From Bacteroidales bacterium (lineage in GTDB: Bacteria > Bacteroidota > Bacteroidia > Bacteroidales > FEN-979): a stretch of DNA of 32,483 nucleotides. The notes beneath the pieces are model-generated. The model did no database searches, was not told the DNA's origin, and saw only the letters and a program-made list of their open reading frames with translations. The position numbers were made by a program, and so were the translations under genes. This document shows positions 1,939 to 18,492 of this stretch, in pieces (the stretch's first letter is position 1; every line of letters starts with the position of its first letter). The stretch lies in the NCBI GenBank assembly GCA_003142515.1, contig PLMO01000182.1:1-32483 (forward strand), given 5' to 3'.

Positions 1939-4758
1939 ATGAATTTCCTCGAATGGAACAACCGTATTGCAGAACACTTCTTCAATTCTTCACAAGCAGG
2001 GAAGGATATATTGTTATTCATTACCAAACAAGAGATTATAAACCTTGCACGAGAAAATTTCGATGGAGAGTCAGATCAAGAAATTTGGATTGACTTTCTC
2101 GTAAAAATTAGAAATGGACTTCCTGGCTCAAGTGGATTCCCGAACCTTTTTGACAAAGCTGTTCATTCTTTTCAACAATGGAAGAGGCCTGGACTAAAAT
2201 CCATTGAAGGAATTGAGCTAAAGTACCCACCTTACATTTCTCATTTAGTTTTTACTGTTTTACCGTTGATTGAAATCCAAGGTGACTATTATGCAAGCAA
2301 CTATTACGATAGATTAGATGATTTTTTAGCAGAGAATTGCATTAACCAAAACTTACGAGGCAAACTAAGAACAATTGACGATTTATGGTCAGACCTTTCA
2401 AACTGGGCTAATGAAGTCAATAATGGCAAATTAGGATTTTTTAAATTATTGACATTTACTAATCGAGCACGAAAGTTTGTTTACAAGCCATTTTCACAGT
2501 GCGTTCTGCCGCCTAAAGCAATTAGAAAACTACCTGATTTCTTCTATACATCTGGATTAACACCAAAAACCTTTTACCAAGACGATATATTCAGAAAACA
2601 TCTAATAAGAAATGGGTTGTCAATACTTGGTTTGAAGCCTGGTGTGATTGACATCATTAAAAAGACAGATGATGAGATTGGAAGATCAATAATTGAAACA
2701 GTAAAATCGGAATTTGAAATTTGGACGGGAGAAGAACATGAAATCATTTTGAAAGATGGAATAGAGAAGCATATTAGAAAGCAAACCGTAGTCCCTATCA
2801 AACTTCAATTCAAACTAAATGAAGATGGTGAAATTGACTTTTCCTTCAGAATAAAATATATAACTGAACCACCACCCGGATTGAAATTCGAAGAGTTTGA
2901 TGACATTTATGAAAATGAAAATTGGTCCAGGACATTCAGGAGACAATTCGACGAACATTTTGAACTTAGAGACCCTATTAATAAATGGACAGCAAAATTT
3001 GAGTTTAGAAATATGCGTCTTTTTATTCGTGGTGGTTATTTCTTACTTGGAAATGATTTCTGGATTGAAACGGAAACCTTATCAAGAGTAGAAGAGATGT
3101 ATCTTCTATGTGGAAACGATATTAAAAATTCGATCAAAGTGTGGGGAGAAAAAAATTGTAGTCACTTTATAGATTGCAGCACATTCCCTAATATTCCAGC
3201 TGGTTATTCGCTTTTCCGTTTTAAGAATCCCCAAACAAGTCATGAGCAATTTCAACAACTCAAAGTTTACAAGAAAAAAAAGATTTCGCTTCGTGAAGGA
3301 ACAGGTTTGAAAATTGGATACAGAACTTACTTGAATGAATTATTACCAGAAATTGAAATATCAAATGCCGATGGAACAGAATCAGTCTACTTTCAATATG
3401 AAGGAAGAGATGACAGATTTTTCCTCCAAAGGCATCCAAGTTTTGGAGGGATTTGGCTATTACCAAGCAATCTGATTCTAAATTCCAATTTTTTAATTCA
3501 AATTGAAAATGAGCACTTAGAGGGTACAAGACAAAATTACAAAATTGATGAAGCATTTTACCAAGAGTTAAGCAATGACATTCTTCCTAAGCGAAATAAG
3601 CACAATTCGATTATTAATGATACTGACAACTTTATTCAGGGAAATAATGTTCAATTTTATGGATTCAGAAGTAATTTGGTTGATGAGCAATCATTTAATC
3701 CAAGCCTAAAGGCGAGAATTCAGCAAATCCCAATCAAATTCACAGATAGTTTATTGTTAAAATGGTTAGTTGGAGTAAAAGATTGTGACATTTTAAAATT
3801 TAACGAAGTATTTGAAATTGTTTTACGCAATACTTTTAAAGAACCCCAACATGATTTTCAGCAAAGGAGAAAATCTTCTATTCATCTTTTGGATTATCTT
3901 GGTTATGTTGATTACGATTATTCAAGTGGGAAAATTTGTACACTACCACCTAAACTAATATCTATTCCATCTACATATGGGCTGAAGGTTCTACTTATTG
4001 GAGGGAGAACCGAAAAATTGATTAATGAAATGATGACCTATTGCTTAAAAAGTGATGGTGAAATTTCACTTTCAATTAAAAAACAAAGTAAATCAAATCA
4101 ACAACTGCTTCTTCCCGATGCAATAATATTTGAGAGTAACAGTAAAACATGTTTTTTGAATCTTGTTAATGAATTTCAGATTGAATTCGATGAATGGTAT
4201 ATTTTAAAGCTAAAAAACTTTCTCACTACTTTGTTAGATTACGAACAATACCAAAAAGATCAAGGCAGTTCGGAATCATGGGAAAGATTTGGGTTAGAGA
4301 CAAAAGTATTCAATAAAGACTCATTAAAGTTTGAAATTTGTGGTGAACCTGATAAAACATACTCGCTTTCTGAGTGCAAACCTGGTTACATTCATGAATA
4401 TGGTTTATGGATTGACCAAGCATATTTCCCAGTAGATAAAAATTGGGGGAAGTATCTATTCCTTAATCATATATCAGAAAAAGAAAGAGGATACGGAGTC
4501 GGGAATTTCTTTGCTAGACCAAAAGAAATTTATTTTACCGAAAATACACTCGCAATTCCGGCGGCTCTTCCTTTGCCAAAACTGATTTCAAGAACAATAA
4601 TTCAATTGAGTGGAGAAGCACCTGAATTCAAACAACTGAATCTCAAAGGCAAGGCTGTATGGTATAATGTTTATCGGGATGTTCCCTCCATATTTACACA
4701 AAATTTTTTTCGATTTATATTAAATATGAACATTGAAACAACCCCACAAGCCATATGA
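1939..4758 (+). CDS. Large unassigned defence-operon protein, 939 aa (Druantia-associated?)
   Basis: First gene of the operon; its stop overlaps the next start by 4 bases (ATGA), so it is probably translationally coupled to the DruE-like helicase. I cannot assign a family. Visible features: an N-terminal ~250-residue part with YPPYISHLVF, YYDRLDDFL, LWSDLSNWAN and GKLGFFKLL, an aromatic-rich arrangement I associate with large accessory proteins of helicase-DUF1998 defence loci; a middle section (~250-560) rich in alternating beta-like segments; and a C-terminal ~250 residues containing KTYSLSECKPGYIHEYGLW. No Walker motif, PD-(D/E)XK, HNH, TIR or membrane helix was seen. By position and size it may correspond to DruH or DruF of Druantia, but this is inference. 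Confidence 0.8.
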   Translation: MNFLEWNNRIAEHFFNSSQAGKDILLFITKQEIINLARENFDGESDQEIWIDFLVKIRNGLPGSSGFPNLFDKAVHSFQQWKRPGLKSIEGIELKYPPYISHLVFTVLPLIEIQGDYYASNYYDRLDDFLAENCINQNLRGKLRTIDDLWSDLSNWANEVNNGKLGFFKLLTFTNRARKFVYKPFSQCVLPPKAIRKLPDFFYTSGLTPKTFYQDDIFRKHLIRNGLSILGLKPGVIDIIKKTDDEIGRSIIETVKSEFEIWTGEEHEIILKDGIEKHIRKQTVVPIKLQFKLNEDGEIDFSFRIKYITEPPPGLKFEEFDDIYENENWSRTFRRQFDEHFELRDPINKWTAKFEFRNMRLFIRGGYFLLGNDFWIETETLSRVEEMYLLCGNDIKNSIKVWGEKNCSHFIDCSTFPNIPAGYSLFRFKNPQTSHEQFQQLKVYKKKKISLREGTGLKIGYRTYLNELLPEIEISNADGTESVYFQYEGRDDRFFLQRHPSFGGIWLLPSNLILNSNFLIQIENEHLEGTRQNYKIDEAFYQELSNDILPKRNKHNSIINDTDNFIQGNNVQFYGFRSNLVDEQSFNPSLKARIQQIPIKFTDSLLLKWLVGVKDCDILKFNEVFEIVLRNTFKEPQHDFQQRRKSSIHLLDYLGYVDYDYSSGKICTLPPKLISIPSTYGLKVLLIGGRTEKLINEMMTYCLKSDGEISLSIKKQSKSNQQLLLPDAIIFESNSKTCFLNLVNEFQIEFDEWYILKLKNFLTTLLDYEQYQKDQGSSESWERFGLETKVFNKDSLKFEICGEPDKTYSLSECKPGYIHEYGLWIDQAYFPVDKNWGKYLFLNHISEKERGYGVGNFFARPKEIYFTENTLAIPAALPLPKLISRTIIQLSGEAPEFKQLNLKGKAVWYNVYRDVPSIFTQNFFRFILNMNIETTPQAI

Positions 4759-7700
4759 AAGATCCCATAGGTTCATTTGAATTAATCAAAGAAAATTTCA
4801 TTCGTTATGTTGAGACTGCTTTTGGGACAAAGTTTCCCGGACTAGAAAAAGAACGAAATGATTTGCTCAATTGTGATAAAGTTCTTTACAGAAAACCGTG
4901 GATTGAGCCATTACCTGATTATGAGACAAGCGGGCTTACAATCAATGATATTAATACAGAGGATTTGGAATTTGCTCTGAACGAGGAAGAAGCAAAATAC
5001 TTCAAAGAAATTGTTAAGACAGGCTTATTTCCTGCTTCAGCAAAATTGCACAAGCATCAAGCTGAAATGTTAAAGGAAGCATTGCAAGGTAACAATTGCA
5101 TCATTACTTCAGGGACTGGTTCCGGTAAGACTGAAGCATTTTTATTTCCATTATTCGCACAACTTTCTAAAGAGTTTATGAAATGGAAAAGTGCAAATCA
5201 AAGATCAGCAAGTATCGATACTTGGTGGAAAGATTCAAATGGGTTAACCCCTGCCAAAATTGTTGACAGTACGAATCGATGTTTGAGCCCAGTAGTTAGA
5301 CAAAGAAATCACGATATTCGGCAAGCAGGAATAAGAGCATTGATTCTTTATCCGATGAATGCTTTAGTGGAAGACCAAATGAGCAGGTTGCGAAAAGCAC
5401 TTGATTCAGATGATACACGAGAATGGTTGGACAAGAATGGTAATGGCAACAAAATTTATTTTGGCAGATACAATGGTTCGACTCCAACTGCTGGAGAACT
5501 TTTCACTTTGGATGGAGAAAGGAACGACGGCAAAATTAAAAAACTGAAATCTGAGCTGAAAGACTTAGATGATGAGTTTCAAAATGTCTCTGAATATATA
5601 CTAACAGATTTACTTAATGAGGAAGATTTCAAGAAACTTAAAGAAGAAAAAAAGAAAGAAAAAATAAAGGAACTAAAATCCTTTTTTCAACGGCTTGATA
5701 ATAGTTCAGAAATGCGATGCAGGTTCGATATGCAAATTGCACCTCCTGATATTCTGATTACGAACTTTTCAATGTTAAGTATTATGCTGATGAGGAACAT
5801 CGATTCAGGCATCTTTGATGAGACAAAAAAATGGCTTAGTTGTGAAGAGTTACCAGAAAATGAAAAAGAAGCGGAAAAAACAAACAGAATATTTCATTTA
5901 ATTATTGACGAGCTACACCTTTACAGAGGCACTCAAGGAACGGAGGTAGCATATCTGCTTAAACTTGTGCTTAACCGTTTGGGATTGCACCCACATCACC
6001 CGCAATTAAGAATACTAGCGTCAAGCGCATCAATTGTTGCTGACGAATCAACAGAAGGGAAAAAAAGCAAAAAGTTTATTGAGGATTTTTTTGGTGTTGA
6101 TTGGAATAGAAAGCCTTTTAAAATAATTGAAGGGAAAAATAATGCCGTTGCTTCCTTATCTGCCGGTGTGAAAAAGCTGCCTATAAACCCTTTTCTATTA
6201 ATTGCAAAAACATATTCACAAACAGGATATGATATTTCCAATCCTGATTTTATTTCATCTTGCGAAAAAGCAGCCAGTGAACTTGCAGATACCTTCAAAA
6301 TTACTCAGGATGGAAAGGGAGTAGAAAAACTTCTCACTGTAATTACAAACCCAATAATACTTATAAAGGAACGAATGTTTTCGCCTTGCGAGAATTATCA
6401 AGCAGTTTGTTCAATCAAAGCAGAAGGAGATGAATCAGAAGAACATTTCTTTGCTAATATGATCTTTGAAAAGCCAAATTCTGAGCAGGATTTACAAGAG
6501 GCGCTGAGAGGTTTGCTAATCTCAAGAGCTTTATTAGACGAACCCCAATTCAAATCGATTGCAGATAATGTTCCTGATAGTAGAAAATTACCAAGATTTC
6601 GTTTTCATTACTTCTTCCGAAATATCGAAGGCATTTGGGCTTCTGTCAAACCTGATGATATTGATAACTTAGGATACAAAGATGGAGAGAGGACTGCCGG
6701 GAAACTTTATTCATCCTCCAAAATTCATTCAGAAAACGGGAACAGAATTTTAGAATTGCTCTATTGTGATAACTGCGGAACAACATTTTTTGGAGGGAGC
6801 AGATCAATAGGGAAAAATAATAATTGGGAACTATTGCCATTAAGCCCGAAGATTGAAGGTATTCCTGAAAAAACACCTGGAAAATTAGTTGACAAGAGAA
6901 CTTATCAAGAATACGGTATTTTCTGGGCCCAAGGTAATCAAAGATTTACTAAACACACACAACGCTTTGGAAGAAATGCAGGCCTGGAAGCAGACACTTG
7001 GAATGATCAAACCTTAGTAAATCCTAGTGATAATAATGATTATATTGCCCAATGGATTCCTGCAATACTAAATGTTAAGTCTGGTGATGTTGATACCGGG
7101 AATAAAGACGATAAGGACAATCCTGAAGATTGGATTAGAGGAAGAATGTTTTTTATTTTTCACAATGGTATTGATGTTGCAAATGATTTATTTGTGCGCA
7201 ATGTAGGACACGATACACATTATGCACTTCCTTGTATTTGTCCTTGTTGTGCAACTGACTATTCAGAAAAAAGAAGCAGGAAATCAACAATTCGTTCATT
7301 CAGAACAGGTTTCGCCAAGACAAGTCAAATTTTTGCAAAGGAGTTAATGTTACAACTCCCAGATAAAGTTGATGAAAGAAAACTTGTTGTTTTTTCTGAC
7401 AGTCGTGAAGATGCTGCTCAAGTTGCAAATGGAATAGAAAGAAATCATTTCACTGATTTATTAAGAGAATCATTACTCTTTGAACTTCACTCAAATATTC
7501 TGATGAAAAACGAACTTGTCAATGCATTTGATAATGGTGATGAAGTAACAAAGCAAAAGTTTGAAAAAGAGCATCAAAATATTTTTGAAGATATCAATGG
7601 GCTTGTTTATCATTCAAATTCTCCCAATCGGCAGGAGAAAGAAAATGCCCTGGAAAGATTAAATCAAATCAGAAAAAGAACAATGAGTGTTCGTGATTTA

Positions 7701-10700
7701 ATTGACCTATCTCCTTCTTTCAACCTTGCTCCAATCATAAAAAATCTTGTAAAACTTGGTGTCAACCCCGGTGGGTTAAATATTTCAATCAGACAAAAGG
7801 AAATTGCGAATGGGGTTTGGGTTGATTGGTATAATCTAATTGATTATTTAAATGAACCAGTTTGGAAATCTCAAACAAACTTAAATCAATTTATTCAACA
7901 AATAAGGAATAATTCATTTGATGAGTTATCTCAAATGTTTTTTGGCCAACTATTTTATTCTTTTGAATCGTCTTGCTTTGGTTATCTTTCAATCAATCCT
8001 GAAACGCCTTCAATAAATCACTTTGTCCAATCACTGAACATTAGTCGTGATTTGTTCTTAGATATTATTAACAGTTCCATTAGAATTTTAGGAGACAAAT
8101 ACAAGCACAACTATTCAGATTTTCCAAATAGAACCCCATTTGTCAATTTTGATTCGTTGCCAGCTCCATTAAGGAGATGGATTAGAAATGTAGCAGCAAA
8201 AAATACTGTTGATCCGGATGATTTAGGAAATGCCATTTATGAGACACTTTTTCGTTCAGGGCTTTTAGATGCACAGCGAGGTTTACTGATTGAGAATTTA
8301 TTTATAAAGGTTTCAACCGGAACAAATCCGATTTGGAAAGGAACATTGGTGAACAGGCCGCATCTGCATTCCTCTGGAGGTATTTGCACTTTTGCTGGAA
8401 CTACAAGAGATGATATTGTTTTAACGGAATTGCTATTATCAAGTGATAATTGTAAAAATCATTGGGATAGAAATTATTTAGCATTCAATGCTATTACCGA
8501 AAGGAGGAAACCAATCCGCTTACATTGTGAAGAATTGACAGGCCAAACAGACAATCAATTTGAACGACAAAGACATTTTAGAAATATTATTTTGCCAAAG
8601 GAAGGAAACCGAAATGTCAAAACTATTGACTTATTGAGCGTTACAACAACTCTGGAAGTTGGAGTCGATATCGGTGCGTTACAAGCAGTGATGTTAGGAA
8701 ATATGCCACCACAAAGGTTCAACTATCAGCAGCGAGTTGGACGGGCAGGACGACGGGGCCAAGCATACTCTGTGATCCTGACTTTTTGTAGAGGTAGAAG
8801 TCATGATGAGTTTTATTTTGCTAATCCACATAAAATTACGAATGATTCACCGCCCACACCGTTTCTTACAATGAATCAAGACCGGATTTTAAAAAGACTA
8901 CTTGCAAAAGAAATTTTCAGAAAGGCATACAAGCAAACTCCCATTAATGTGACCAATGACGAAAAATCAAGCATACATGGTGAATTTGGTAAAATTGGTA
9001 TAGCACAAGTGAATTGGATTGATTACAAATCGCAAATTATTACCTGGATTCTAAAAAACAAAGAAGAAGTAGAAAAAACAGTTGATGCATTGATTACACC
9101 TGAACTGCAAGGACATAGAGGTGAATTAATTAATTGGATTTATGATGTTAATGCAGATAATGCATTAATAAATAAATCTCAAAGTGTAATTGATAACAAC
9201 GAGATTTCTTCTGATGATGTTTCGCAAAAGTTGGCCGAAGGTGGAATTCTTCCAATGTTTGGAATGCCAACGACAATAAAGAACTTGTTTCATGGATTCA
9301 ATAAAAAATTTGAACCACTTTTAATAGACCGGGATCAATCAATGGCAATTTATGAGTTCGCACCTGGCGCACAGAAAACAAAGGACAAAGCAATTCACAC
9401 GGTCATAGGTTTTACTTCCGAATTACGGGATAAATTATCTCAATATGGTAGTCCAAACTATGAAGGCGGCCCTTTTTATATTAATAAGTGGATGGTCCGT
9501 TGCAAGAGCTGTGGATTTTACAAGACTTATACTGAAGAGGAAAAAATCCAATTAGAAGCGCAAAGTTATTTTGATGTATGCCCAAATGGGGGAGATGCTT
9601 GTATAGGATATCAACCACCGGTCATGTTAAAAGCACCAAGGGCTTACAGGACAAATTTTTCCCAAGGAGAGGATTCAAAAGAAGACTCATTAATACTTTT
9701 ATCACGACCGCCAATTCTTGCAGAATCAAGTGGTGATGTTGACAACAAAACAGAAACTGCTAAAATAAGAAACACTAATCTTACAATTTCAGACCATGAT
9801 GTAACTTGGCGTGTAAATACCAACGCAGACAATTTTTTCACAGGGAAACTATATAACACAGTAAACAGATTCCCGTTTGGACAAAGAATCGGTTATAGGT
9901 CTCAAGAACAATGGATTATCAACGACCTTTCAGGTCGCTATTCTGACGACAATGGGTATTCGATGGAAGCCTTTCCGGTTGCTAATTCTCAAGAAGAATT
10001 AATAGCATTAGCAAGTAATAAAAAAACTGAGATTTTAAGATTAGCACCAGCTTCAGTTCAAGGTGCATTAAACCTGAATATGGTTTCGACCGAAATTCCC
10101 AACAACATAACACACATCAGCGCACAATCATATGGAGTGCGGTCGGGATATTATTCGGCTGCTTTTTTGCTTCAAAGAATAATTGCAGATAAACTTGATG
10201 TCGACCCAACAGAAATTGAAGTTGCTGACATTGCAAGAAAACCACTTAATGATGATACTGGCAGATTTGTTGCAGAAATTATTTTGACAGATGAATTGCC
10301 AAACGGTTCGGGATTCGTTAGACATTTGTTTGACAATTTTGAAACAATACTTTCAGATTCAATTGCCCCATCAGATGATAAGGTCTATTTGAAGAAAATT
10401 CACTCCGATTCTCATTCAAATTCTTGTAAAGATTCCTGCTATGAATGTTTGAAGGTTTATAGAAATATGAATTACCATAGTTTGCTTGACTGGCGATTAG
10501 CATTATCCATGCTCAGAACGATGCACGATGAATCATTTGTTTGTGGTGCGGATTACAACTTTGACTTTATTGAATTGAAGGATTGGCTCTCAACAGCAAT
10601 AGGATTAAGAAACACATTTGCCCAAAGTTTTGGATACAAGAACAATGAAGAGGAGAATGGACTTCCAATAATTAAATGGGGGGCGAACAAAAAAAATGTT

Positions 10701-10883
10701 ATTGCAATAGTACATCCATTTTGGAATGTTAGTAATCTTAATTATGATGAAAACTGGTTGGCAAAAACATTTACAGCATTAAGAAAGTATGTCGGTTCAA
10801 CAGGAGGTTCACTAAGTATTATTGACACATTCAATTTACTAAGAAGACCTGGTTGGTGCTATGAGAAATTGATTATTAGATGA
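4755..10883 (+). CDS. druE: DruE-like SF2 helicase with DUF1998-like C-terminus, 2042 aa
   Basis: A very large superfamily 2 helicase. Walker A TSGTGSGKT is at residues 118-126. Motif II reads DELH (385-388) instead of DEAH/DEAD. The second RecA domain has TTTLEVGVDIG from 1297 and the arginine-finger motif QRVGRAGRR at 1326-1334. Cysteine pairs C671/C674 and C829/C831/C832 may form a zinc ribbon inserted between the RecA lobes, and C1583/C1586 begins another. The C-terminus has the DUF1998-type pattern: SYGVRSGYYSAAFLLQR, then C1891, C1895, C1898 followed by YRNMNYHSLLDWRLA. A lysine/glutamate-rich, probably coiled insertion lies at ~255-320. Size, fold order and methylase neighbour fit DruE of Druantia. 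Alternatives are a DISARM-like DrmA/DrmB fusion or another YprA/MrfA-type helicase. It overlaps both neighbours by 4 bases. Confidence 0.85.
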   Translation: MKDPIGSFELIKENFIRYVETAFGTKFPGLEKERNDLLNCDKVLYRKPWIEPLPDYETSGLTINDINTEDLEFALNEEEAKYFKEIVKTGLFPASAKLHKHQAEMLKEALQGNNCIITSGTGSGKTEAFLFPLFAQLSKEFMKWKSANQRSASIDTWWKDSNGLTPAKIVDSTNRCLSPVVRQRNHDIRQAGIRALILYPMNALVEDQMSRLRKALDSDDTREWLDKNGNGNKIYFGRYNGSTPTAGELFTLDGERNDGKIKKLKSELKDLDDEFQNVSEYILTDLLNEEDFKKLKEEKKKEKIKELKSFFQRLDNSSEMRCRFDMQIAPPDILITNFSMLSIMLMRNIDSGIFDETKKWLSCEELPENEKEAEKTNRIFHLIIDELHLYRGTQGTEVAYLLKLVLNRLGLHPHHPQLRILASSASIVADESTEGKKSKKFIEDFFGVDWNRKPFKIIEGKNNAVASLSAGVKKLPINPFLLIAKTYSQTGYDISNPDFISSCEKAASELADTFKITQDGKGVEKLLTVITNPIILIKERMFSPCENYQAVCSIKAEGDESEEHFFANMIFEKPNSEQDLQEALRGLLISRALLDEPQFKSIADNVPDSRKLPRFRFHYFFRNIEGIWASVKPDDIDNLGYKDGERTAGKLYSSSKIHSENGNRILELLYCDNCGTTFFGGSRSIGKNNNWELLPLSPKIEGIPEKTPGKLVDKRTYQEYGIFWAQGNQRFTKHTQRFGRNAGLEADTWNDQTLVNPSDNNDYIAQWIPAILNVKSGDVDTGNKDDKDNPEDWIRGRMFFIFHNGIDVANDLFVRNVGHDTHYALPCICPCCATDYSEKRSRKSTIRSFRTGFAKTSQIFAKELMLQLPDKVDERKLVVFSDSREDAAQVANGIERNHFTDLLRESLLFELHSNILMKNELVNAFDNGDEVTKQKFEKEHQNIFEDINGLVYHSNSPNRQEKENALERLNQIRKRTMSVRDLIDLSPSFNLAPIIKNLVKLGVNPGGLNISIRQKEIANGVWVDWYNLIDYLNEPVWKSQTNLNQFIQQIRNNSFDELSQMFFGQLFYSFESSCFGYLSINPETPSINHFVQSLNISRDLFLDIINSSIRILGDKYKHNYSDFPNRTPFVNFDSLPAPLRRWIRNVAAKNTVDPDDLGNAIYETLFRSGLLDAQRGLLIENLFIKVSTGTNPIWKGTLVNRPHLHSSGGICTFAGTTRDDIVLTELLLSSDNCKNHWDRNYLAFNAITERRKPIRLHCEELTGQTDNQFERQRHFRNIILPKEGNRNVKTIDLLSVTTTLEVGVDIGALQAVMLGNMPPQRFNYQQRVGRAGRRGQAYSVILTFCRGRSHDEFYFANPHKITNDSPPTPFLTMNQDRILKRLLAKEIFRKAYKQTPINVTNDEKSSIHGEFGKIGIAQVNWIDYKSQIITWILKNKEEVEKTVDALITPELQGHRGELINWIYDVNADNALINKSQSVIDNNEISSDDVSQKLAEGGILPMFGMPTTIKNLFHGFNKKFEPLLIDRDQSMAIYEFAPGAQKTKDKAIHTVIGFTSELRDKLSQYGSPNYEGGPFYINKWMVRCKSCGFYKTYTEEEKIQLEAQSYFDVCPNGGDACIGYQPPVMLKAPRAYRTNFSQGEDSKEDSLILLSRPPILAESSGDVDNKTETAKIRNTNLTISDHDVTWRVNTNADNFFTGKLYNTVNRFPFGQRIGYRSQEQWIINDLSGRYSDDNGYSMEAFPVANSQEELIALASNKKTEILRLAPASVQGALNLNMVSTEIPNNITHISAQSYGVRSGYYSAAFLLQRIIADKLDVDPTEIEVADIARKPLNDDTGRFVAEIILTDELPNGSGFVRHLFDNFETILSDSIAPSDDKVYLKKIHSDSHSNSCKDSCYECLKVYRNMNYHSLLDWRLALSMLRTMHDESFVCGADYNFDFIELKDWLSTAIGLRNTFAQSFGYKNNEEENGLPIIKWGANKKNVIAIVHPFWNVSNLNYDENWLAKTFTALRKYVGSTGGSLSIIDTFNLLRRPGWCYEKLIIR

Positions 10884-11953
10884 TGAATAAAGTTGGCGAA
10901 ATAGAATTCAAGAAAATACGGAGAATTTCACCGAGTCAATTTTATTCAATGAAAAATTGTCGTTACAAATCTCTATTGGCGGAAGCAATGAATAAAAAAC
11001 CATTACTTCCAATTTCTCCTAATGCATATTATGGAACTGTATTACACAAATTGCTTGAGCTAATATCAAAGGGTGAAATCATTAATGAAAATGACTTTAA
11101 TAAAACTTTTGAAGAGCAAATTGGATTAATGGAACAAAAATTACTTGAACAGGGTTTTGACTTTTTTGTTCCACTTCAAAAAAAGGTAAAGGACTTTATG
11201 ATGAAAAAGATTCTACTGAAAGAACATTTACACAATTTTTCAGGGCAATCTCAGTCATTAACAAGGGTTAATTATATAGCAGAGAAATGGTACGAATCAA
11301 AAGATAAAACGATAGGTGGAAAGATCGATTTGGTAATTGAGGAAGGCAACAAAATAGAAATATTTGATTTTAAAACAGGAGCAATAACACAAGATTATTT
11401 AGATGATGATGGAGAAGTTTATTCCGATGTAAAAGAAGAATACAAGGATCAACTTAAACTTTATGCTTACATATATTATGAAAACACGGGCAAATTCCCA
11501 ACCAAATTAAGTTTAGTTGACCTAGCAAAGCAAAAATTTGCAGTTCCTTTTTCTCAGAAAGAATGTTATACTGTTTATTTGGAATCAAAAAATTTATTAA
11601 ATACAGTAAATAGTTGCATTGACACAGGGATATTCAAAGCAAATCCTACAGAGTCAAATTGCAAGTTTTGCTTATACAGACCCGCTTGTTCTTTTTACTT
11701 GAACCAGATTGAAATATGTAGCACCTTTAAAGATGTTTCTGGATTTTTGGTGAATACTTTGAAATTTCAAAATGGGAATATCAGTGCATATATAGAATCA
11801 GGGAGGAAAAGATTAACGGTTTCTAATTTACCAGAAGAAATGTTTGATGAGTTAAATGAGAGCCATACGAAAAAACTATATTTTTTCAACCTTAAACGAG
11901 AAACAAAAGACGGATTATATACTGCAACAAAGGCGACAATGATTTATGAATAA
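10880..11953 (+). CDS. Cas4/AddB-like PD-(D/E)XK nuclease with Fe-S cysteines, 357 aa
   Basis: A RecB-family nuclease. After an N-terminal SPSQFYSMKNCRYK segment comes GTVLHKLLE (helix with the conserved His), then GGKIDLVI with D150, the core FDFKTG (D163, K165) and QLKLYAYIYY, the usual Q-x-x-x-Y helix. Cysteines C27, C261, C264 and C270 have the spacing of the four-cysteine iron-sulfur site that staples N- and C-termini in Cas4 and AddB. The expected activity is DNA exonuclease or flap/end processing; this is family knowledge, not shown here. It starts inside the stop of the helicase gene and overlaps the methyltransferase start by 8 bases, so it is part of one operon. It may be the equivalent of DruG or DruF, but I cannot confirm this. 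Confidence 0.85.
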   Translation: MMNKVGEIEFKKIRRISPSQFYSMKNCRYKSLLAEAMNKKPLLPISPNAYYGTVLHKLLELISKGEIINENDFNKTFEEQIGLMEQKLLEQGFDFFVPLQKKVKDFMMKKILLKEHLHNFSGQSQSLTRVNYIAEKWYESKDKTIGGKIDLVIEEGNKIEIFDFKTGAITQDYLDDDGEVYSDVKEEYKDQLKLYAYIYYENTGKFPTKLSLVDLAKQKFAVPFSQKECYTVYLESKNLLNTVNSCIDTGIFKANPTESNCKFCLYRPACSFYLNQIEICSTFKDVSGFLVNTLKFQNGNISAYIESGRKRLTVSNLPEEMFDELNESHTKKLYFFNLKRETKDGLYTATKATMIYE

Positions 11954-13073
11954 TAATAGCAAACATAAAATTCCAATTCTCTCATTTTACTCGGGTGGGG
12001 GGTTTTTAGATATGGGTTTTGAAATGGCAGGATTTGAAATCGTTTGGACAAACGAGTTCGATGTTGTTTTTGCAAAACTTCATTCTGCTGGTATAACATC
12101 TTGGAGAAAGGCAAGAGGTAATGGAATTAAAGCTGAAATATTCAATGTCAAATCTATAATAGAAATAGGCTCTGAAGATATTATAAATGAAGCATTTCCA
12201 CTAGGTAAGCCTGGGGACTTTGGAATAATCGGAGGTCCGCCATGTCAGGACTTCAGTATGAATGGGAGTTTAAAAGGTTTTGATGGCGAGAGGGGAAAAC
12301 TTACAATCCTATTCTATGACAAAATTTTAGATTTAAGACCAACATTTTTCGTAATGGAAAATGTTACTGGATTAACCAAAAGCAACTCGACTAAAGAACA
12401 TTTACAAAAACTATTACAAAAAGTTGAGAAAGAGTATTTTGTTGACCACAAGACATTAAATGCTTTAGACTTTGGTGTACCTCAATTTAGGGAAAGAGTT
12501 TTTTTTGTTGGAATTCGGAAAGATAAAATTGATGAGCAAGTAATAAATCAAAGTCCTTTTGGTCAATGGTTTACATTTCCAGTGAACCCTAAGTATCAAG
12601 ATGCAGCGACAAAATATAAATGGCCAACGTCAGTCCCTTTCGGAAAAAATTTGACTAAGCCGAATGTGTTGCCACTTGAATTATGCGTTGCAAGTTGTTT
12701 AGTCTCCCATCGCGAAATGAAAACAATTCCTAATGCAAATGAATATTTTAAATTGTATAATTCTGAAGAAACGCTAAATGCAATTGATGAGGGGGAAACA
12801 AATAGACCATCGTTTAAACGATTACATCGCTTTAAATTTAGCCCTACAGCTTGTTATGGTAATAATGAAGTCCATTTACACCCATATAAAAACAGGCGTT
12901 TATCAGTGCGTGAAACATTGAGAATACAAGGCGTTCCTGACTCATATGTGCTTCCTCCGGAGTTACCATTAACGAAAAAATTCAAAATGATAGGTAATGG
13001 GGTTCCGGTTCCTCTGGCAAATGCTGTTGCCATTGCGCTTCATTTATTCCTTGAAAAGCAGAACGTGATTTAA
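11946..13073 (+). CDS. DNA (cytosine-5-)-methyltransferase, 375 aa
   Basis: All main C5-methyltransferase motifs are present in order: motif I FYSGGGFLDMGFEMAGF binds S-adenosylmethionine; motif IV GGPPCQDFS carries the catalytic C100; motif VI is ENV at 138-140; motif VIII QFRERVFFVG; then a short target-recognition region; RRLSVRETLRIQG (motif IX); and IGNGVPVPLANAV (motif X). It transfers a methyl group to cytosine C5; the target sequence cannot be predicted. In this operon it would mark host DNA for protection and so could correspond to DruM of Druantia type II. Its GC content matches the other A+T-rich island genes. A 3-base gap separates it from vsr. Confidence 0.95.
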   Translation: MNNNSKHKIPILSFYSGGGFLDMGFEMAGFEIVWTNEFDVVFAKLHSAGITSWRKARGNGIKAEIFNVKSIIEIGSEDIINEAFPLGKPGDFGIIGGPPCQDFSMNGSLKGFDGERGKLTILFYDKILDLRPTFFVMENVTGLTKSNSTKEHLQKLLQKVEKEYFVDHKTLNALDFGVPQFRERVFFVGIRKDKIDEQVINQSPFGQWFTFPVNPKYQDAATKYKWPTSVPFGKNLTKPNVLPLELCVASCLVSHREMKTIPNANEYFKLYNSEETLNAIDEGETNRPSFKRLHRFKFSPTACYGNNEVHLHPYKNRRLSVRETLRIQGVPDSYVLPPELPLTKKFKMIGNGVPVPLANAVAIALHLFLEKQNVI

Positions 13074-13076
13074 CCA

Positions 13077-13484
13077 ATGGACATCTGGACAAAAAAGAAG
13101 AGAAGTGAAGTAATGAGTAGAATTAAAAGTAAGGATACAAAACCTGAACTAATTCTGCGTTCAAGTCTTTTTAAGTTAGGCTTTAGATTTCGAGTTCATC
13201 GCAAAGATCTTCCTGGTAAACCAGATATAGTTTTACCCAAGTATCATACAGTTATTTTCGTTCATGGTTGTTTTTGGCATTATCATGATAATTGCATTGA
13301 AGGCCGCATTCCCTCTACAAATTCATTATTTTGGGAAACGAAGCTTGAAAGAAATATCGCCAATGACATAAAAAATAGTGAGCTGCTTAAATTAAGTAAC
13401 TGGAAAGTGATAGTAGTCTGGGAATGTCAAATAAATAAACATCTTGAAAAGACGATTAATAAAATCATTATGGAGTTAATCTGA
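13077..13484 (+). CDS. vsr: Very short patch repair (Vsr) endonuclease, 135 aa
   Basis: Full-length Vsr. The N-terminus has RSEVMSRIKSKDTKPE; the catalytic region PGKPDIVLP gives D50, followed by H63, C65, W67 and H68 in VHGCFWHYH. C65, H70, C73 and C117 match the structural zinc ligands of E. coli Vsr allowing for a one-residue insertion. Vsr nicks at T:G mismatches produced when 5-methylcytosine deaminates and starts short-patch repair. It follows the cytosine methyltransferase by 3 bases, the classical dcm-vsr pairing, and is the last gene of the five-gene operon. Confidence 0.95.
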   Translation: MDIWTKKKRSEVMSRIKSKDTKPELILRSSLFKLGFRFRVHRKDLPGKPDIVLPKYHTVIFVHGCFWHYHDNCIEGRIPSTNSLFWETKLERNIANDIKNSELLKLSNWKVIVVWECQINKHLEKTINKIIMELI

Positions 13485-13616: not shown

Positions 13617-14525
13617 ATGATTCTAACAAAACGTCTTCGACAAAATCTAATTGAAAAATGGTTAGTGATTCAAACACCAATATCTCCATCAAGCCGATAC
13701 AGGTTAAGGGTTTGGAAAGAAAATCACAATGAATTTGATGCTATCAAAGAGGATTTGATAGAGTATTTTGAATCTGCATTTGCGGATGCAAAAGAAAGAC
13801 TTCATAAAGGATTTGACATTTCATTATCACCTTTTAAGGATACAATTCTTGATCCTGCAGCAAATTATCCTACAATGTTACACCGCAATACACTTCTAGG
13901 ATATTTCGGGGAGACTCTTTCAGTAATTGCCGTCGAACATTGGGGAGCACTTGGGTTGAGTGATTGGCAAGTCCCCTTTATGCTTTTTAGGATGCATGAA
14001 ATCGAATTTCAACATCTTGAAACAATAAACGAAAGAATAATTGCTGGGATAAATGTTGATCCCGATGATGTTGCAGAAATACGTCCTGGACGAACTGGAG
14101 ATGATGCAATTGTTTTTCGAATCGATGATAAGAATATAATCACGGACGTTCTAACCTTGGAAGCAAAGTGTCTATCAGCAAATAATAATACAAAAATCAA
14201 AGAAGCGCATGAAAAGCTTGTTAATAGTGTCAGAAGGCCGACTAGCATACATGAACTTATTGAAATACTTCATGATTATAATTCGAAGGAAGCTAAACAA
14301 TGGCAAGAGTCGCTTCTTCATTTGTGGTCAAATGGTTATATAAACGCGAACAGACATGATGGGGTTTGTTATGCTTGCGCTGAGACCCCAAAGAAAAAAA
14401 CTTCTTGGTTAGACCCAGATAAGCCCCATCCTGCATACACTTTGAAAAGAAATCTTGAGTGCATGGAATTCCATCTCCAAGATCTGAAGATAACTATTGA
14501 TGCAATATTTAAGAGGGAGAAATAA
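13617..14525 (+). CDS. hamA: HamA-like (DUF1837-type) nuclease component, 302 aa
   Basis: The central part has GYFGETLSVIAVEHWG with E99, then DWQVPFMLFRMHEIEFQ, then GRTGDDAIVFRID with D162/D163, and finally LEAKCLS with E182 and K184. This E...D...ExK layout is that of a PD-(D/E)XK-type nuclease and fits HamA of Hachiman, in which HamA is the nuclease partner of a helicase. Its length and the 1-base TAATG overlap with a ~1200-aa helicase gene support that. The start is uncertain: the first ~35 residues look less natural than an overlapping reading in another frame from 13659, so the true N-terminus may differ. The DUF1837/HamA name comes from pattern memory and needs a profile search. Confidence 0.7.
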   Translation: MILTKRLRQNLIEKWLVIQTPISPSSRYRLRVWKENHNEFDAIKEDLIEYFESAFADAKERLHKGFDISLSPFKDTILDPAANYPTMLHRNTLLGYFGETLSVIAVEHWGALGLSDWQVPFMLFRMHEIEFQHLETINERIIAGINVDPDDVAEIRPGRTGDDAIVFRIDDKNIITDVLTLEAKCLSANNNTKIKEAHEKLVNSVRRPTSIHELIEILHDYNSKEAKQWQESLLHLWSNGYINANRHDGVCYACAETPKKKTSWLDPDKPHPAYTLKRNLECMEFHLQDLKITIDAIFKREK

Positions 14526-17500
14526 TGATAACCGAAAAAATATTCACTAATTCAAAGGAGGTCCGTGAAAAAGCTGCAAATAAAACTTTGACCGAAGGAC
14601 AAGCTCGTTTATACAGCCAAAGCCTACGAAAGAGCTTAAGACAGGATGGCTTAAAAAGTTTTCGTCCTGAAGAAGAGTTGAAGGACCTTGACGAAGCACT
14701 GTTACTAATCCAATGTGCTCTTATTGAACGGCGTTTTAATCCTAATGGTAGTTGGCGAGATGGAATTAAAAGAGCTGCGGAAATCATGGAGTGGCTGTCC
14801 AAACTCAATTCATCTCAACTTGAATCTCCATTAGTTCTTCTTTCCGCTGCAGCCTATCAGTTAGCCAATTATCCAGCAATGGCTCTTGGACAACTAAGAA
14901 CCATTCGAGAAGATCAATTAACTTCATTAATTCTGTCAACATTTTTAACCGCTAATTTTCCGGCAACTTTAACAGCAATTCAAAAATTTTGGCAACAATA
15001 TTATTTTCAACTTAATACTGGACAGATTTTTAAAGATAATATTACTTGCAGCATCTTTTATGAGGTAATAAGATGTTTGGGAGTGGTCTGTACCTATTTT
15101 CGACAGGGAAATGAAGATTTGAGAACCCTAGCGAACGATGCTATAGATAAATTTATATGTCATACTGATTCATTGATATATTCTCGAGATCCTTATTCAT
15201 TCCTACTTAGTACACTTACTTCAGCAAGTTGTTCACATTTTAATGAAGTTTGTCTCTGGCAACATATTTTAAAGTTGGGAGATAAATCTGATGATTCTCT
15301 AAATGGCGCGCTGATTCAATTTGCAAAAGCCTCATTCAACAATCGACGCTCTCTAATTTGGCCGTCGCAATTTTCTGGTATTAAACAACTTCCCTCCAAA
15401 GAATCATTTGTTCTTTGTACTCCTACAGGGTCAGGAAAAACCACAGTAGCTACAATTGCATTATTACAGGCACTTTTTTCTGAACTTCACCCTGGGTTAG
15501 GTATAAGACCAGAAAATAATCAAGGAAATTTAGCGCTTTACCTAGTTCCATCAAGAGCTCTGGCATCAGAAGTGGAAGCAAGACTACTTCAGGATTTTAA
15601 GGGTGTGTCAAAAACTCCAGTTATTATTACCGGATTATATGGTGGTATAGATTGGGGACCAACCGATGCCTGGGTCCAATCAGATAATCCTACTATTGTG
15701 GTTTGTACTTTTGAAAAAGCCGATGCTTTATTAAGATACTTAGGGGTATTATTTCTTCATCGAGTTCGGTTAATAGTCATTGATGAAGCCCATATGGTGG
15801 AGCAAGATTTAACTAGGCTACCTGATCTTATCTCAGGAACATCTAGGTCACTTCGTCTCGAACAGTTAGGTGTACGTATACTTCGAGCACAATCAGAGTA
15901 TAAATTTAGGATTATTGCTTTATCAGCAGTGGCAGCAAATGCTGCACCTGCAATGTCACGCTGGATATCTAGTAACCCTGAAGCTTTACCTGCTACATCG
16001 TCATATCGTAGCACAAGACAAATGATTGGTCAACTGGAAGTTAGTTCTGCAGGTAACTATATGATCAGGTACAAGCTAATGGATACTTGCTCTTTAAAAT
16101 TTGATGATGAAGTAAGAGCTGATACACCGTATGTTTCTGATCCAATTCCTAAATTATCTGGAGGCGTCGACAATACAGCAGGGCCTGAAGTTTCAATGCG
16201 TGCTCCGACTTTATGGGCAGCCTTACATCTTGCAGCTGAGCAAGATGATGGCACGCGGCCTTCAGTATTAATATCCATAACTTCAAGTATTGAGAATTTT
16301 ATAGCAACTTGTGCAGAATTGATGGATGAATGGTCTAAGTCTCCTTTGCCAAATTACCGGCATCTAGATAATTCAGATGAATTGTGGAATAAAACTCTTT
16401 CAATCATTGCAGATTATTTTTCTATTGAATCTATTGAATATAGGCTTATTCTGCATGGTATTGCTGTTCACCATGGAAAAATGCCTGGACTTTTAGCACG
16501 TAGAATAAAAAATCTGATAAACCGTGGAGATTTACGAGTTATCATTGCAACTTCAACACTTTCTGAAGGTGTTAATATTCCTGTTACGTACCTTTTAATC
16601 CCAAGTTTATGGAGAGGACCTGTCGAGATGAGTCTTCAAGAATTTACAAATCTTTCCGGACGTGCTGGTAGACCAGGAGTTTCTACAGAAGGTAGCACAC
16701 TTGTCGTCCTTCCAGAAAGGAAATGGAAAACTTATTATGGCCGTCGAGTACCTGAGTTCAACCGCCAATGGGAACGGTTTGAGGAAATTATTAGTGAGCT
16801 TGTCCAAGTTAATAATACACAAGTTCAAGATATTTCTGAAAGCACACCCAAGAGTCCACTTGCTTACCTCCTGATAACATTGAAAGATGCTTGGTCAAAG
16901 TTAACTGGTGATGAAAGAGATTCTGAATTCTACTTGTGGTTAGAAAAAACAGCCATATCTGAAATTGCCGAGAATGAAGATGAAGAAAAAGCCTATTCAT
17001 TGCTCGATACTTTAGACACAATACTCATAGCTTCAATTCAGGAAGTCGAGGAATTGGAACAAAGAGAACTTGAACCTGACCAAATTGAAACGGAACTTAA
17101 AGTAATTTGGCAAAAAACTTATGCGTATGCAACGCTTATAGAGGAGCAACAATTATCGGAAATTTGGCTTAAGAGAGGAAATGTAATAAAGAAGAAGTAT
17201 CCTGACTCACAGAATCGACGACAAATTTATCGTTCAAGTCTATCACCTGGGTCTGCAACAGTTCTATTTAAAATTGAAGATGAAGTAAAAACCCTTCTTC
17301 TGCATGGTGTTGATTATGCAGTTTGGGAAAACGAAAAACGATTTGAGTTCATTTGTGATGTTATTGCCAAGCTATCTGAGGTACCCTCTTTCAGCATTGG
17401 TACAAACTTAGGTCGAATTAGAAATTTTACAGGTTGGAAAGAAATATTGCGATGGTGGCTGTTAAAGGATTCCATTAAAGATCAACCCACTCCAAAAAAG

Positions 17501-18112
17501 GTTACTCAATGGTTTGAGTTCGTCTCACATAATTTCATTTATCGCAGCGTATGGGCAGTTGGAAGCATTCTTGGATTAATCCTAGATAATGGTAAAAATG
17601 ACGAGAAAATTAAGTTACTCGAAATTGGAGACTGGCCTAACAGTGGCTTACCTTGGTTGGCATTCTGGCTCAAGGAAATAATAACATGGGGCACCCTCGA
17701 TCCAGTTGTTGCATTTGTCATGGCACACGATAAAGCAACCGATAGAAAACAAGCAGCAACTTTAGCTCAGGATTATTATTCAAAAGTGTCTGCTACCCTT
17801 GATTCCAACAGTATTCTAGACCCCAGGAGTATTCGGGATTGGATGTTATCTATTGGTTATAAACGTCCTAGAAAAGAGAAATCCTATTTCGATGAAATAA
17901 GTGTGAGTCTTGTTCGTCCAATTAATGATTACATCACTCAACAAATAATTGTTCTGCCACTTGAAGTTCAAAATGCTATAATATGGATTACTCCATCTGG
18001 GTTTAAAGTGGCTGAAAGCAAAAAAATATCTATCCCTATAAGTGATTTTTTATTATTTGAATTTGAACTAAATGTTTCAAATTCAAAGGTGATTGCAAAA
18101 CCTTACATTTAA
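14525..18112 (+). CDS. hamB: HamB-like Ski2-type SF2 helicase, 1195 aa
   Basis: Helicase motifs are intact: Walker A TPTGSGKTT at 299-307, DEAH at 420-423, SAVAA (motif III) soon after, STLSEGVNIP (motif V) and QEFTNLSGRAGRPG (motif VI) from 705. The SGRAGRPG form is typical of Ski2/Hel308-like enzymes. Residues 1-~270 are a helical N-terminal extension before the first RecA domain, and ~380 residues of mixed helices follow the helicase core. A clear ribosome-binding purine run (GAGGGAGAAAT) precedes the ATG, which overlaps the last base of the HamA-like stop. The likely role is a DNA-translocating helicase that activates or delivers the nuclease partner during phage attack. AbpA/AbpB-type or another nuclease-helicase pair is the main alternative. 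Confidence 0.8.
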   Translation: MITEKIFTNSKEVREKAANKTLTEGQARLYSQSLRKSLRQDGLKSFRPEEELKDLDEALLLIQCALIERRFNPNGSWRDGIKRAAEIMEWLSKLNSSQLESPLVLLSAAAYQLANYPAMALGQLRTIREDQLTSLILSTFLTANFPATLTAIQKFWQQYYFQLNTGQIFKDNITCSIFYEVIRCLGVVCTYFRQGNEDLRTLANDAIDKFICHTDSLIYSRDPYSFLLSTLTSASCSHFNEVCLWQHILKLGDKSDDSLNGALIQFAKASFNNRRSLIWPSQFSGIKQLPSKESFVLCTPTGSGKTTVATIALLQALFSELHPGLGIRPENNQGNLALYLVPSRALASEVEARLLQDFKGVSKTPVIITGLYGGIDWGPTDAWVQSDNPTIVVCTFEKADALLRYLGVLFLHRVRLIVIDEAHMVEQDLTRLPDLISGTSRSLRLEQLGVRILRAQSEYKFRIIALSAVAANAAPAMSRWISSNPEALPATSSYRSTRQMIGQLEVSSAGNYMIRYKLMDTCSLKFDDEVRADTPYVSDPIPKLSGGVDNTAGPEVSMRAPTLWAALHLAAEQDDGTRPSVLISITSSIENFIATCAELMDEWSKSPLPNYRHLDNSDELWNKTLSIIADYFSIESIEYRLILHGIAVHHGKMPGLLARRIKNLINRGDLRVIIATSTLSEGVNIPVTYLLIPSLWRGPVEMSLQEFTNLSGRAGRPGVSTEGSTLVVLPERKWKTYYGRRVPEFNRQWERFEEIISELVQVNNTQVQDISESTPKSPLAYLLITLKDAWSKLTGDERDSEFYLWLEKTAISEIAENEDEEKAYSLLDTLDTILIASIQEVEELEQRELEPDQIETELKVIWQKTYAYATLIEEQQLSEIWLKRGNVIKKKYPDSQNRRQIYRSSLSPGSATVLFKIEDEVKTLLLHGVDYAVWENEKRFEFICDVIAKLSEVPSFSIGTNLGRIRNFTGWKEILRWWLLKDSIKDQPTPKKVTQWFEFVSHNFIYRSVWAVGSILGLILDNGKNDEKIKLLEIGDWPNSGLPWLAFWLKEIITWGTLDPVVAFVMAHDKATDRKQAATLAQDYYSKVSATLDSNSILDPRSIRDWMLSIGYKRPRKEKSYFDEISVSLVRPINDYITQQIIVLPLEVQNAIIWITPSGFKVAESKKISIPISDFLLFEFELNVSNSKVIAKPYI

Positions 18113-18282: not shown

Positions 18283-18307
18283 AAAAAGGGTCCCAGAAGT
18301 TGACCCT
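18283..18307 (-). terminator. Terminator for tRNA-Pro
   Basis: On the minus strand a 6-bp stem (AGGGTC with GACCCT, 9-base loop) is followed by a short T run. It begins 22 bases past the tRNA-Pro 3' end, so it would end that transcript before the defence island. Confidence 0.6.
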
Positions 18308-18328
18308 CTGAAACCCTTGATTTTGCTG

Positions 18329-18404
18329 TCGGGGTAGCAGGATTCGAACCTGCGACCTCCTGCTCCCAAAGCAGGCGCGATGAACCGGGCTACGCTATAC
18401 CCCG
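18329..18404 (-). tRNA. tRNA-Pro (anticodon TGG)
   Basis: The minus strand folds as a cloverleaf. The acceptor stem CGGGGTA pairs with TACCCCG, with discriminator A. The anticodon arm is CCTGC-TTTGGGA-GCAGG, giving anticodon TGG. The T arm contains GGTTCGAATCC. CCA is not encoded. Its 3' end points toward the A+T-rich defence island, the usual side for tRNA-targeted integration. Confidence 0.95.
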
Positions 18405-18413
18405 AAGCGATTT

Positions 18414-18447: not shown

Positions 18448-18492
18448 TTTTACCTTTATGAACTTTAAAAACTTTATAACTCTGTGACTCTG

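What the first reader, a model, noticed from the sequence alone, without database searches (positions are those of the whole stretch)
1939..13484. Five-gene helicase/nuclease/methylase/Vsr operon resembling Druantia but with an unusual gene set
The sequence shows one overlapping operon: unknown 939 aa, DruE-like 2042-aa helicase with a DUF1998-like end, Cas4-like nuclease, cytosine methyltransferase, Vsr. Druantia is defined by DruE; type II adds a methylase (DruM) and two further proteins (DruF, DruG). The order here, with the methylase and nuclease after the helicase and a Vsr gene included, may be a variant or new subtype. The match of the 939-aa and nuclease genes to DruF/DruG/DruH is inference.
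Basis: partly seen in the sequence, partly recalled or inferred. Interest (0 to 1): 0.75.

Follow-up and report, generated by a model that had tools for sequence, protein, structure and literature searches.

The report
Druantia-like phage defence operon variant
A five-gene bacterial operon that probably protects its host against viruses turns out to be a recurring, previously unsorted arrangement of the Druantia defence family, with its own DNA-marking and DNA-cutting enzymes.

Summary
Five overlapping or near-touching genes (1939-13484) encode DruF, DruE, a PD-(D/E)XK nuclease (DruK), a cytosine methylase (DruM) and Vsr. The 939-aa 'unknown' is DruF: its halves match PADLOC DruF and DruL, and DruL probably corresponds to the C-terminal half of type II DruF. 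DruG, required for type II, was not found; type IV is defined without DruM.

The order DruF(L)-DruE-DruK-DruM is complete in 10 of 13 related loci. All 13 lie on one side of a fully supported DruE branch, with two cyanobacterial F-L-E loci, apart from eight type II loci. Vsr does not define it: it follows DruM in 3 of the 10 and lies near 8 of 8 type II loci examined.

DruF evolves fastest, druM was swapped between cassettes, and DruM shares a segment with methylases of Bse634I/Cfr10I-family restriction systems, suggesting a CCGG-core site. Likely model: DruF senses, DruE translocates, DruK cuts, DruM marks self, Vsr repairs. New variant of a known kind; mechanism inferred. A Hachiman-like pair lies downstream.

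The parts
1939..4758 (+). druF (DruF+DruL in one protein), 939 aa; proposed sensor/regulator
   Evidence: PADLOC DruF4 230 bits over 1-572 and DruL4 120 bits over 606-916; poorly conserved stretch 573-605 marks the join; profile match to type II DruF
4755..10883 (+). druE, 2042-aa YprA-family SF2 helicase with MZB/DUF1998 zinc module
   Evidence: PADLOC DruE2 1736 bits, DruE4 1591 bits; Pfam DEAD, Helicase_C, MZB; GTGSGKT at 120, DELH at 385, QRVGRAGR at 1326
10880..11953 (+). druK, 357-aa PD-(D/E)XK nuclease with a four-cysteine pattern of the AddB/Cas4 kind (cluster type recalled)
   Evidence: PADLOC DruK 68 bits, PDDEXK_1; GGKID 146, DFKTG 163, QLKLY 191, CxxCxxxxxC 261; C27, D150, D163, K165, Q191, C261, C264, C270 identical in 12 of 12 rows
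11946..13073 (+). druM, C5-cytosine methyltransferase, predicted CCGG-core specificity
   Evidence: PADLOC DruM2 493 bits; GPPCQ, ENV, QxRER motifs; segment shared with Bse634I/Cfr10I-linked methylases
13077..13484 (+). vsr, T:G mismatch nicking endonuclease
   Evidence: PF03852 and TIGR00632 above cut-off; aligned to the solved Vsr 1cw0 (E. coli, recalled) at E 9e-28
13617..18112 (+). adjacent Hachiman-like pair (HamA-like 13617-14525, HamB 14525-18112); separate system
   Evidence: HamB1 227 bits; HamA1 only E 0.0023
18328..18404 (-). tRNA-Pro at the right border of the low-GC stretch
   Evidence: ARAGORN and Rfam; homology with relative L081 stops at window 18254

Best explanation
A Druantia variant of fixed order druF(L)-druE-druK-druM, here with vsr, that works like a restriction system built round a DNA translocase. 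DruF, the fastest-changing subunit, is proposed to sense infection or regulate the complex. DruE is a helicase loading on 3'-tailed DNA (by analogy with type III); the nuclease-like domain at the DruE end is reported inactive in type I and II relatives, so the separate DruK nuclease does the cutting as DruE moves. DruM methylates a CCGG-core site, probably RCCGGY or close to it, in host DNA and so marks self. Vsr repairs T:G mismatches left when 5-methylcytosine deaminates. Shown here: gene identities, recurring order, one group in the DruE tree, motifs present, purifying selection, druM exchange. Inferred: defence function, roles of DruF and DruK, methylation site, self-marking.
For: Profile identities. 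Recurrence of the order: 10 of 13 loci complete, 12 of 13 with E-K-M. DruE tree with all 13 on one side of a 100% branch. E next to K also outside this group, in L039, L075 and L111. Pairwise identities over 11 loci track DruE best for DruK (r 0.938) and DruF (0.906), less for DruM (0.781). DruF diverges most: window against L053 is 27% for DruF but 62% DruE, 61% DruK, 78% DruM. DruE and DruK motifs present. Segment of DruM shared at 71-77% with three Bse634I/Cfr10I-linked methylases against 16-23% in three control methylases. Type III: DruE as helicase-nuclease effector and DruH as likely sensor (PMC13192584, passages). Bell et al.: type I and II DruE carry predicted inactivated Vsr-like domains (PMC12458937, section 8).
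Against: No experiment. Both structure predictions were unusable (mean pLDDT 31). Homology of the DruE C-terminus to Vsr was not significant (P 0.08; four control regions 0.11-0.85). druM behaves as a swappable module (L005/L050). L035 and L038, inside the same branch, have F-L-E with neither K nor M by profile (L035 has an annotated PD-(D/E)XK protein about 4 kb downstream that did not match the DruK profile at 1e-5). L057 has no DruM in the 1.9 kb before its contig end. The 8-nt K/M overlap holds in the window and five other loci computed but not in L051, L054, L055 and L056, where 6-99 nt separate the genes (coordinates). DruM's target domain proper is only 19-32% like the CCGG-linked methylases (controls 9-21%); the strong match is confined to about 31 residues.
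Confidence: 0.47

Rival explanations
1. An F-L-E Druantia (type IV) core, perhaps with DruK, and with DruM and Vsr as neighbours: DruM-Vsr would be an orphan methylase pair or restriction-system remnant that hitch-hikes and has no part in the defence reaction.
For: druM swapped alone between L005 and L050; L035 and L038, next to L056 in the tree, lack K and M by profile; K and M are 6-99 nt apart, not overlapping, in L051, L054, L055, L056 (coordinates); the gene after DruM varies: Vsr, a type II REase (L051), an AspBHI-like methyl-directed REase (L050), others; Vsr can stabilise a solitary cytosine methylase (PMC12907096, abstract and passages).
Against: E-K-M order kept in 12 of 13 loci, with an 8-nt K/M overlap in the six loci computed; DruE and DruM identities still correlate (r 0.781; 1 of 5000 permutations as high); best PADLOC hit of DruM is a Druantia model.
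Confidence: 0.32
2. Ordinary type II Druantia (DruM, DruF, DruG, DruE) with the genes in another order.
For: DruE2 and DruM2 are the best PADLOC models for P0002 and P0004; DruF is homologous; type II loci also carry Vsr nearby (8 of 8).
Against: No DruG in the window by PADLOC (the PADLOC DruG model is weak even on a type II locus, 24 bits on L037) or by a profile of eight DruG-position proteins, and no profile match of that set to DruF, DruL or DruK; DruK is extra; separate groups in the DruE tree.
Confidence: 0.12
3. A DISARM, ARMADA or YprA/MrfAB-type DNA-repair operon rather than Druantia.
For: DruE belongs to the YprA family; short helicase-motif matches to DrmA (34 bits) and BrxHI/BrxHII (44 bits).
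Against: Full-length DruE matches of 1591-1736 bits; no BrxHII-like helicase plus PglX pair and no split DrmA/DrmB among the window proteins scanned.
Confidence: 0.03

Closest known systems
Druantia type II (DruM-DruF-DruG-DruE)
   Same: Homologous DruE and DruF, a cytosine methylase, Vsr nearby (8 of 8 examined)
   Different: No DruG found; DruK added; methylase after DruE (in 6 of the 8 type II loci it lies before); DruM of a different subfamily (21-26% core identity to three type II DruM; motif segment 20-27%)
Druantia type IV (DruE, DruF, DruL), PADLOC
   Same: DruF and DruL both present and in the same order before DruE; DruF4 and DruL4 are the best models for the two halves of P0001
   Different: F and L in one protein; a DruM is present, while type IV was defined as lacking DruM and DruG (PMC8565338, passages). 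PADLOC-DB also holds a DruK label, whose place in its rules I could not read
Druantia type III (DruH-DruE)
   Same: YprA-family helicase with a partner protein
   Different: No DruH hit; type III DruE carries PLD nuclease domains (PMC12458937), here the nuclease is a separate PD-(D/E)XK protein
AddAB/Cas4-type PD-(D/E)XK nucleases
   Same: DruK motifs and four cysteines; only PDB match is the nuclease region of an AddA-type subunit, E 2e-4
   Different: Separate subunit in a Druantia operon
Bse634I/Cfr10I-family restriction-modification systems
   Same: Their methylases share DruM's SFKRLHR-YSPTA-YGNNEVHLHP segment
   Different: No Bse634I-like endonuclease found at E 1e-3 among ORFs of the window and 37 loci (no positive control in that search)

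Membership tests
Druantia (all types) | DruE helicase with DUF1998/MZB end | tested here: met
   DruE2 1736 bits over 1-2039; MZB 25.5 bits over cut-off 24.2
Druantia type II | DruM cytosine methylase | tested here: met
   DruM2 PDLC00030 493 bits
Druantia type II | DruF | tested here: met
   DruF2 PDLC00021 204 bits; profile P 4e-10 to type II DruF N-half
Druantia type II | DruG | tested here: not met
   No DruG hit in 8 window proteins nor with a profile of eight DruG-position proteins over window ORFs; seven of those eight are called DruG by position and size only, PADLOC was run on L037's alone
Druantia type IV | DruE, DruF and DruL | tested here: met
   DruF4 and DruL4 on one protein, DruE4 1591 bits
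Druantia type IV | lacks DruM and DruG | tested here: not met
   DruM present; definition read in PMC8565338 passages
Druantia types I and II as described by Bell et al. | inactivated Vsr-like domain at the DruE C-terminus | tested here: inconclusive
   HPFW aligned to Vsr HGCFW but P 0.08; model unusable
Type IV CoCoNuT (Bell et al. name for Druantia II) | inactivated McrB-like CnuB homologue with coiled coil | tested here: inconclusive
   No Pfam AAA/McrB match in P0001 or P0003; inactivated forms could escape
[quoted passage not shown]
   Neither among the 8 window proteins scanned; the BrxHI/BrxHII match (44 bits) is a 51-residue helicase-motif stretch of DruE itself
DISARM | split DrmA/DrmB with DrmC | tested here: not met
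   DrmA 34 bits over 73 residues of DruE only
Any Druantia | protects against phages | not testable with these tools
   needs plaque assays

The most novel reading that the evidence does not exclude
A distinct Druantia type (DruF(L)-DruE-DruK-DruM, optional Vsr) that is a true restriction-modification machine: a methylase taken from RCCGGY-type restriction systems marks self, while a helicase with a separate AddB/Cas4-like nuclease and a fast-evolving sensor replaces the classical restriction enzyme. The methylase slot is exchanged between cassettes like a cartridge.
Probability: 0.3. Interest if true: 0.65.

Novelty: new variant of a known kind. Interest (0 to 1): 0.5.

Why it matters
I found no mechanism in print for Druantia types II and IV in the held library (searches; subscription papers are mostly missing from it). 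This variant links the two types. It suggests that 'DruL' of type IV corresponds to the C-terminal half of type II DruF, separates a nuclease subunit (DruK) that can be mutated without touching the helicase, and gives a concrete methylation site to test, so the question whether Druantia uses DNA methylation for self-recognition becomes directly testable. Annotation rules that require DruG, or exclude DruM, may misname such loci.

Tried and rejected
AlphaFold2 of DruF (3-row alignment) and of the DruE C-terminal 553 residues (5-row alignment) gave mean pLDDT 31 and were not searched or interpreted. Sequence proof that the DruE end is a dead Vsr: not significant. Attachment-site repeat of tRNA-Pro at the left border: nothing longer than 12 nt in the window. 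Empty site: the right border could be placed against a relative, the left could not, because P0008 has no match in the three relatives searched. DruK in viral contigs: 27 loci, 23-28% identity, mostly over the nuclease core; I take them to be generic Cas4-like nucleases and did not use them. DruE in viral contigs: none with P0002, four with the profile, one of them (L111) with F/L-E-K. Phage records: 2 weak helicase-motif matches. Promoter scan: 70 sites against 59 expected, uninformative. PDB 9wae (1970-aa 'Helicase', E 1e-195) is the nearest solved relative, but a search for its code found no paper. Idea that Vsr defines the variant: rejected. Idea that DruL equals DruG: no support. Transcriptional link to the Hachiman pair: not settled (132-nt gap). 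Of the 17 window proteins scanned with Pfam none is an integrase; the ORF at 3-509 was not scanned.

Rows left out of counts: L059 (contig end, F/L and part of E) and L058 (the F/L contig that I pair with L005, because L005 matches contig C57 of the same genome G418 in length and place) are not tree rows. L036 (Hymenobacter, broken DruE) and the four viral-contig loci were not put in the tree. All 18 plasmid records whose DruE match covers at least 80% of the query were read as regions, plus L075 at 72% (19 regions). Of 729 plasmid records with a DruM match, 12 were listed and 7 read.

Full report
What is there. The window carries five overlapping or nearly touching genes on the + strand: 1939-4758, 4755-10883, 10880-11953, 11946-13073, 13077-13484, with junctions of -4, -4, -8 and +3 nt. 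A gap of 132 nt separates them from a two-gene Hachiman-like unit (13617-18112), and the low-GC stretch ends near a tRNA-Pro gene. Third-position GC is 0.25-0.29 in the seven genes and 0.59 in the aconitase gene beyond the tRNAs, so the block looks acquired. In the family relative G488 the stretch 18254-18405 with the tRNA is kept at 93% identity, and beyond it lies a different, 877-aa gene.

What the proteins are. PADLOC gives P0001 as DruF over residues 1-572 (DruF4, 230 bits) and DruL over 606-916 (120 bits); P0002 as DruE (DruE2 1736 bits, DruE4 1591); P0003 as DruK (68 bits); P0004 as DruM (493 bits); P0005 as Vsr. Pfam and NCBIfam agree where they have models. Signature motifs are present in DruE, DruK, DruM and Vsr. 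In DruK the residues C27, D150, D163, K165, Q191, C261, C264 and C270 are identical in 12 of 12 rows. Reading these as nuclease residues and as an iron-sulphur cluster of the AddB/Cas4 kind is recalled knowledge. The only sequence relative in the PDB is the nuclease region of an AddA-type subunit at E 2e-4.

The 939-aa gene. hhalign of the F halves against the N-terminal half of eight type II DruF proteins gives P 4e-10. For the L half the evidence is weaker. The pooled DruL set against the type II C-terminal half gives P 3e-4 (probability 39%), score 37.6 against at most 20.5 in 30 column-shuffled controls. The cyanobacterial DruL set alone gives P 3e-5 (73%), collinear over 239 columns. The window-type DruL set alone gives P 0.47, although its best alignment falls in the same place. 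Separate DruL proteins of L055 and L056 also weakly hit the end of a 1011-aa PADLOC DruF2 model (E 4e-4 and 2e-4). So F+L in one chain is probably the type II state as well, and the split is the variable feature (F and L are separate in L055, L056, L057 and in the cyanobacterial loci). DruG has no counterpart in the window by PADLOC, by profile search or by profile comparison. The DruG set rests on position and size in seven of eight loci, and on a weak PADLOC hit in L037 (24 bits).

Recurrence. I looked for DruE relatives in genome contigs (4 loci), in 395 genomes of the class, 295 of the order and 395 of the phylum (overlapping draws, the window's own genome counted in each; 38, 4 and 9 genomes with a match, the first at E 1e-3 and including distant helicases, the others at 1e-60), and in plasmids (70 records, 18 with at least 80% coverage). 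That the phylum is Bacteroidota is inferred from the record titles of L002-L005. With window-based profiles, the complete order F/L-E-K-M was found in 10 of the 13 loci grouped with the window: window, L002, L003, L050, L051, L052, L053, L054, L055, L056. L004 and L005 start inside DruE and show E-K-M. L057 shows F-L-E-K without M up to its contig end and has a broken DruE. In an SH-aLRT tree of 35 DruE proteins, rooted at the midpoint, these 13 lie on one side of a 100% branch, which also takes in two cyanobacterial F-L-E loci (L035, L038); the eight type II M-F-G-E loci, with L039, form the neighbouring group. The tree used a quick search and a simple model, and many rows have odd composition. 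PADLOC scores point the same way: representative DruE proteins of this side score nearly alike on DruE2 and DruE4 (window 1736/1591, L035 1936/1893, L056 1871/1808, L054 1695/1553), while a type II DruE scores 2340/1184. DruK is not confined to this group: it also follows DruE in L039, L075 and the viral contig L111.

Junctions. K and M overlap by 8 nt in the window, L002, L003, L004, L005 and L053. By the ORF coordinates they are 99, 85, 99 and 6 nt apart in L051, L054, L055 and L056; in L050 and L052 the longest ORFs overlap by 41 and 56 nt and the true start is not settled.

Vsr. Of the 10 complete cassettes, Vsr follows DruM in 3 (window, L052, L053), precedes DruF in 2 (L054, L055) and is not seen in 5. 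Of the 8 type II loci, 8 have a Vsr gene in the stretch fetched. Other loci with a methylase near DruE but no Vsr by profile are L068, L072 and L074. So Vsr tends to go with the cytosine methylase and does not define the variant. After DruM other cassettes carry a type II restriction enzyme (L051, 437 bits), an AspBHI-like methyl-directed enzyme (L050, 472 bits) or other defence-candidate genes.

Evolution of the parts. Across 11 loci (DruF of L005 taken from L058), identity matrices correlate: DruE-DruK 0.938, DruE-DruF 0.906, DruE-DruM 0.781 (permutations reaching the value: 0, 0 and 1 of 5000); DruF-DruM is weakest, 0.536 (46 of 5000). DruF changes fastest: window against L053 is 27% for DruF and 62% for DruE, spread along the chain. 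druM has moved on its own: L005 and L050 share 90% of DruM residues but 61% of DruE, and the nucleotide identity per 100 bases is 83-95% inside druM (about 6700-7690 of L005), 56-81% in druK before it and 37-66% after it. Among the four nearest loci dN/dS is 0.04-0.18 in the four genes; synonymous sites are near saturation in many pairs, and one DruM pair could not be computed.

DruM's likely site. Of 729 plasmid records with a DruM match, 12 were listed and I read 7. Three (41.5%, 37.3% and 35.0% identity) sit beside a Cfr10I/Bse634I-family restriction enzyme (PF07832 in 3 of 3; L114's enzyme is Bse634I by sequence, 1knv E 1e-173). A fourth (L119, no annotation) has no such gene in its 6 kb by phmmer. 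These four share 71-77% of the residues 286-316 of DruM (SFKRLHR-YSPTA-YGNNEVHLHP), whereas the three control methylases, with similar core identity (37-41% against 32-43%), share 16-23%, and three type II DruM share 20-27%. Within this variant the segment is kept at 74-97% except in L056 (42%) among the seven other DruM in that call. That Cfr10I and Bse634I recognise RCCGGY is recalled. The prediction is therefore a CCGG-core site, RCCGGY first. Against it, the target domain proper is only 19-32% alike (controls 9-21%). A CCGG-core solitary methylase with a functionally linked Vsr-like protein is known from Caulobacter (PMC12907096, abstract and passages).

How it most likely works. Shown: gene identities, motifs, order, grouping, selection, exchange of druM. 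Inferred: DruF senses or regulates (fastest-changing part; in type III the partner DruH is the likely sensor, PMC13192584, passages), DruE translocates, DruK cuts, DruM marks host DNA, Vsr repairs its deamination products. The main rival is that DruM and Vsr are passengers beside an F-L-E(-K) core.

Known or new. PADLOC's paper defines type IV by DruE, DruF, DruL and the lack of DruM and DruG, and type II as requiring DruM and DruG (PMC8565338, passages). Bell et al. classify YprA helicases and describe Druantia types I-III (PMC12458937, passages, sections 5, 7, 8 and legends). I found no text on this combination: searches, several of which were swamped by unrelated words; 'DruK' with 'Druantia' gave 0 papers. 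Results against strong novelty: PADLOC-DB already holds a DruK label and a DruM model that fits this methylase at 493 bits, so its authors have probably seen such loci. Doron et al. 2018, which named Druantia, was not read (recalled). I therefore call it a new variant of a known kind.

Limits. No experiment, no usable structure model, a sample dominated by one phylum and, for type II, by plasmid records, and no access to PADLOC's rule files.

Noticed in passing
13617-18112: A Hachiman-like pair directly downstream: HamB is clear (227 bits), HamA is very divergent (PADLOC HamA1 E 0.0023) but keeps an ExK motif at 182-184, as the HamA nuclease does (D-E(X)K, PMC12278908, passages); it may be an unmodelled HamA branch.
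   Followed up: partly
18328-19243: tRNA-Ser lies inverted relative to the aconitase gene when compared with relatives L081 and L082; a 23S rRNA intervening-sequence-type protein (18493-18894) sits between the two tRNAs here and is kept in L082, while L081 has only a 72-nt gap between its tRNAs.
   Followed up: partly
L050:3922-5109 (-): An AspBHI-like methyl-directed restriction enzyme lies about 300 nt after a DruM cytosine methylase, an odd pairing unless their sites differ.
   Followed up: no
L051:3967-5070 (-): A type II restriction enzyme (437 bits to PADLOC REase_II) overlaps the end of a divergent DruM, so this Druantia cassette carries a restriction-modification pair.
   Followed up: no
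L111:6743-16989: An IMG/VR contig carries F/L-E-K in order with a DruM-like gene on the other strand nearby, so such cassettes may travel on viral or proviral elements.
   Followed up: no
L072:5940-19098: Alisedimentitalea plasmid: DruF-like, DruE, unknown 655-aa gene, cytosine methylase, then an MvaI/BcnI-family restriction enzyme; another methylase-after-helicase arrangement on a distant DruE branch.
   Followed up: no
593-1612 (-): DUF7309/DUF6930 protein at the left edge of the low-GC stretch, without a match in the three nearest relatives searched.
   Followed up: no
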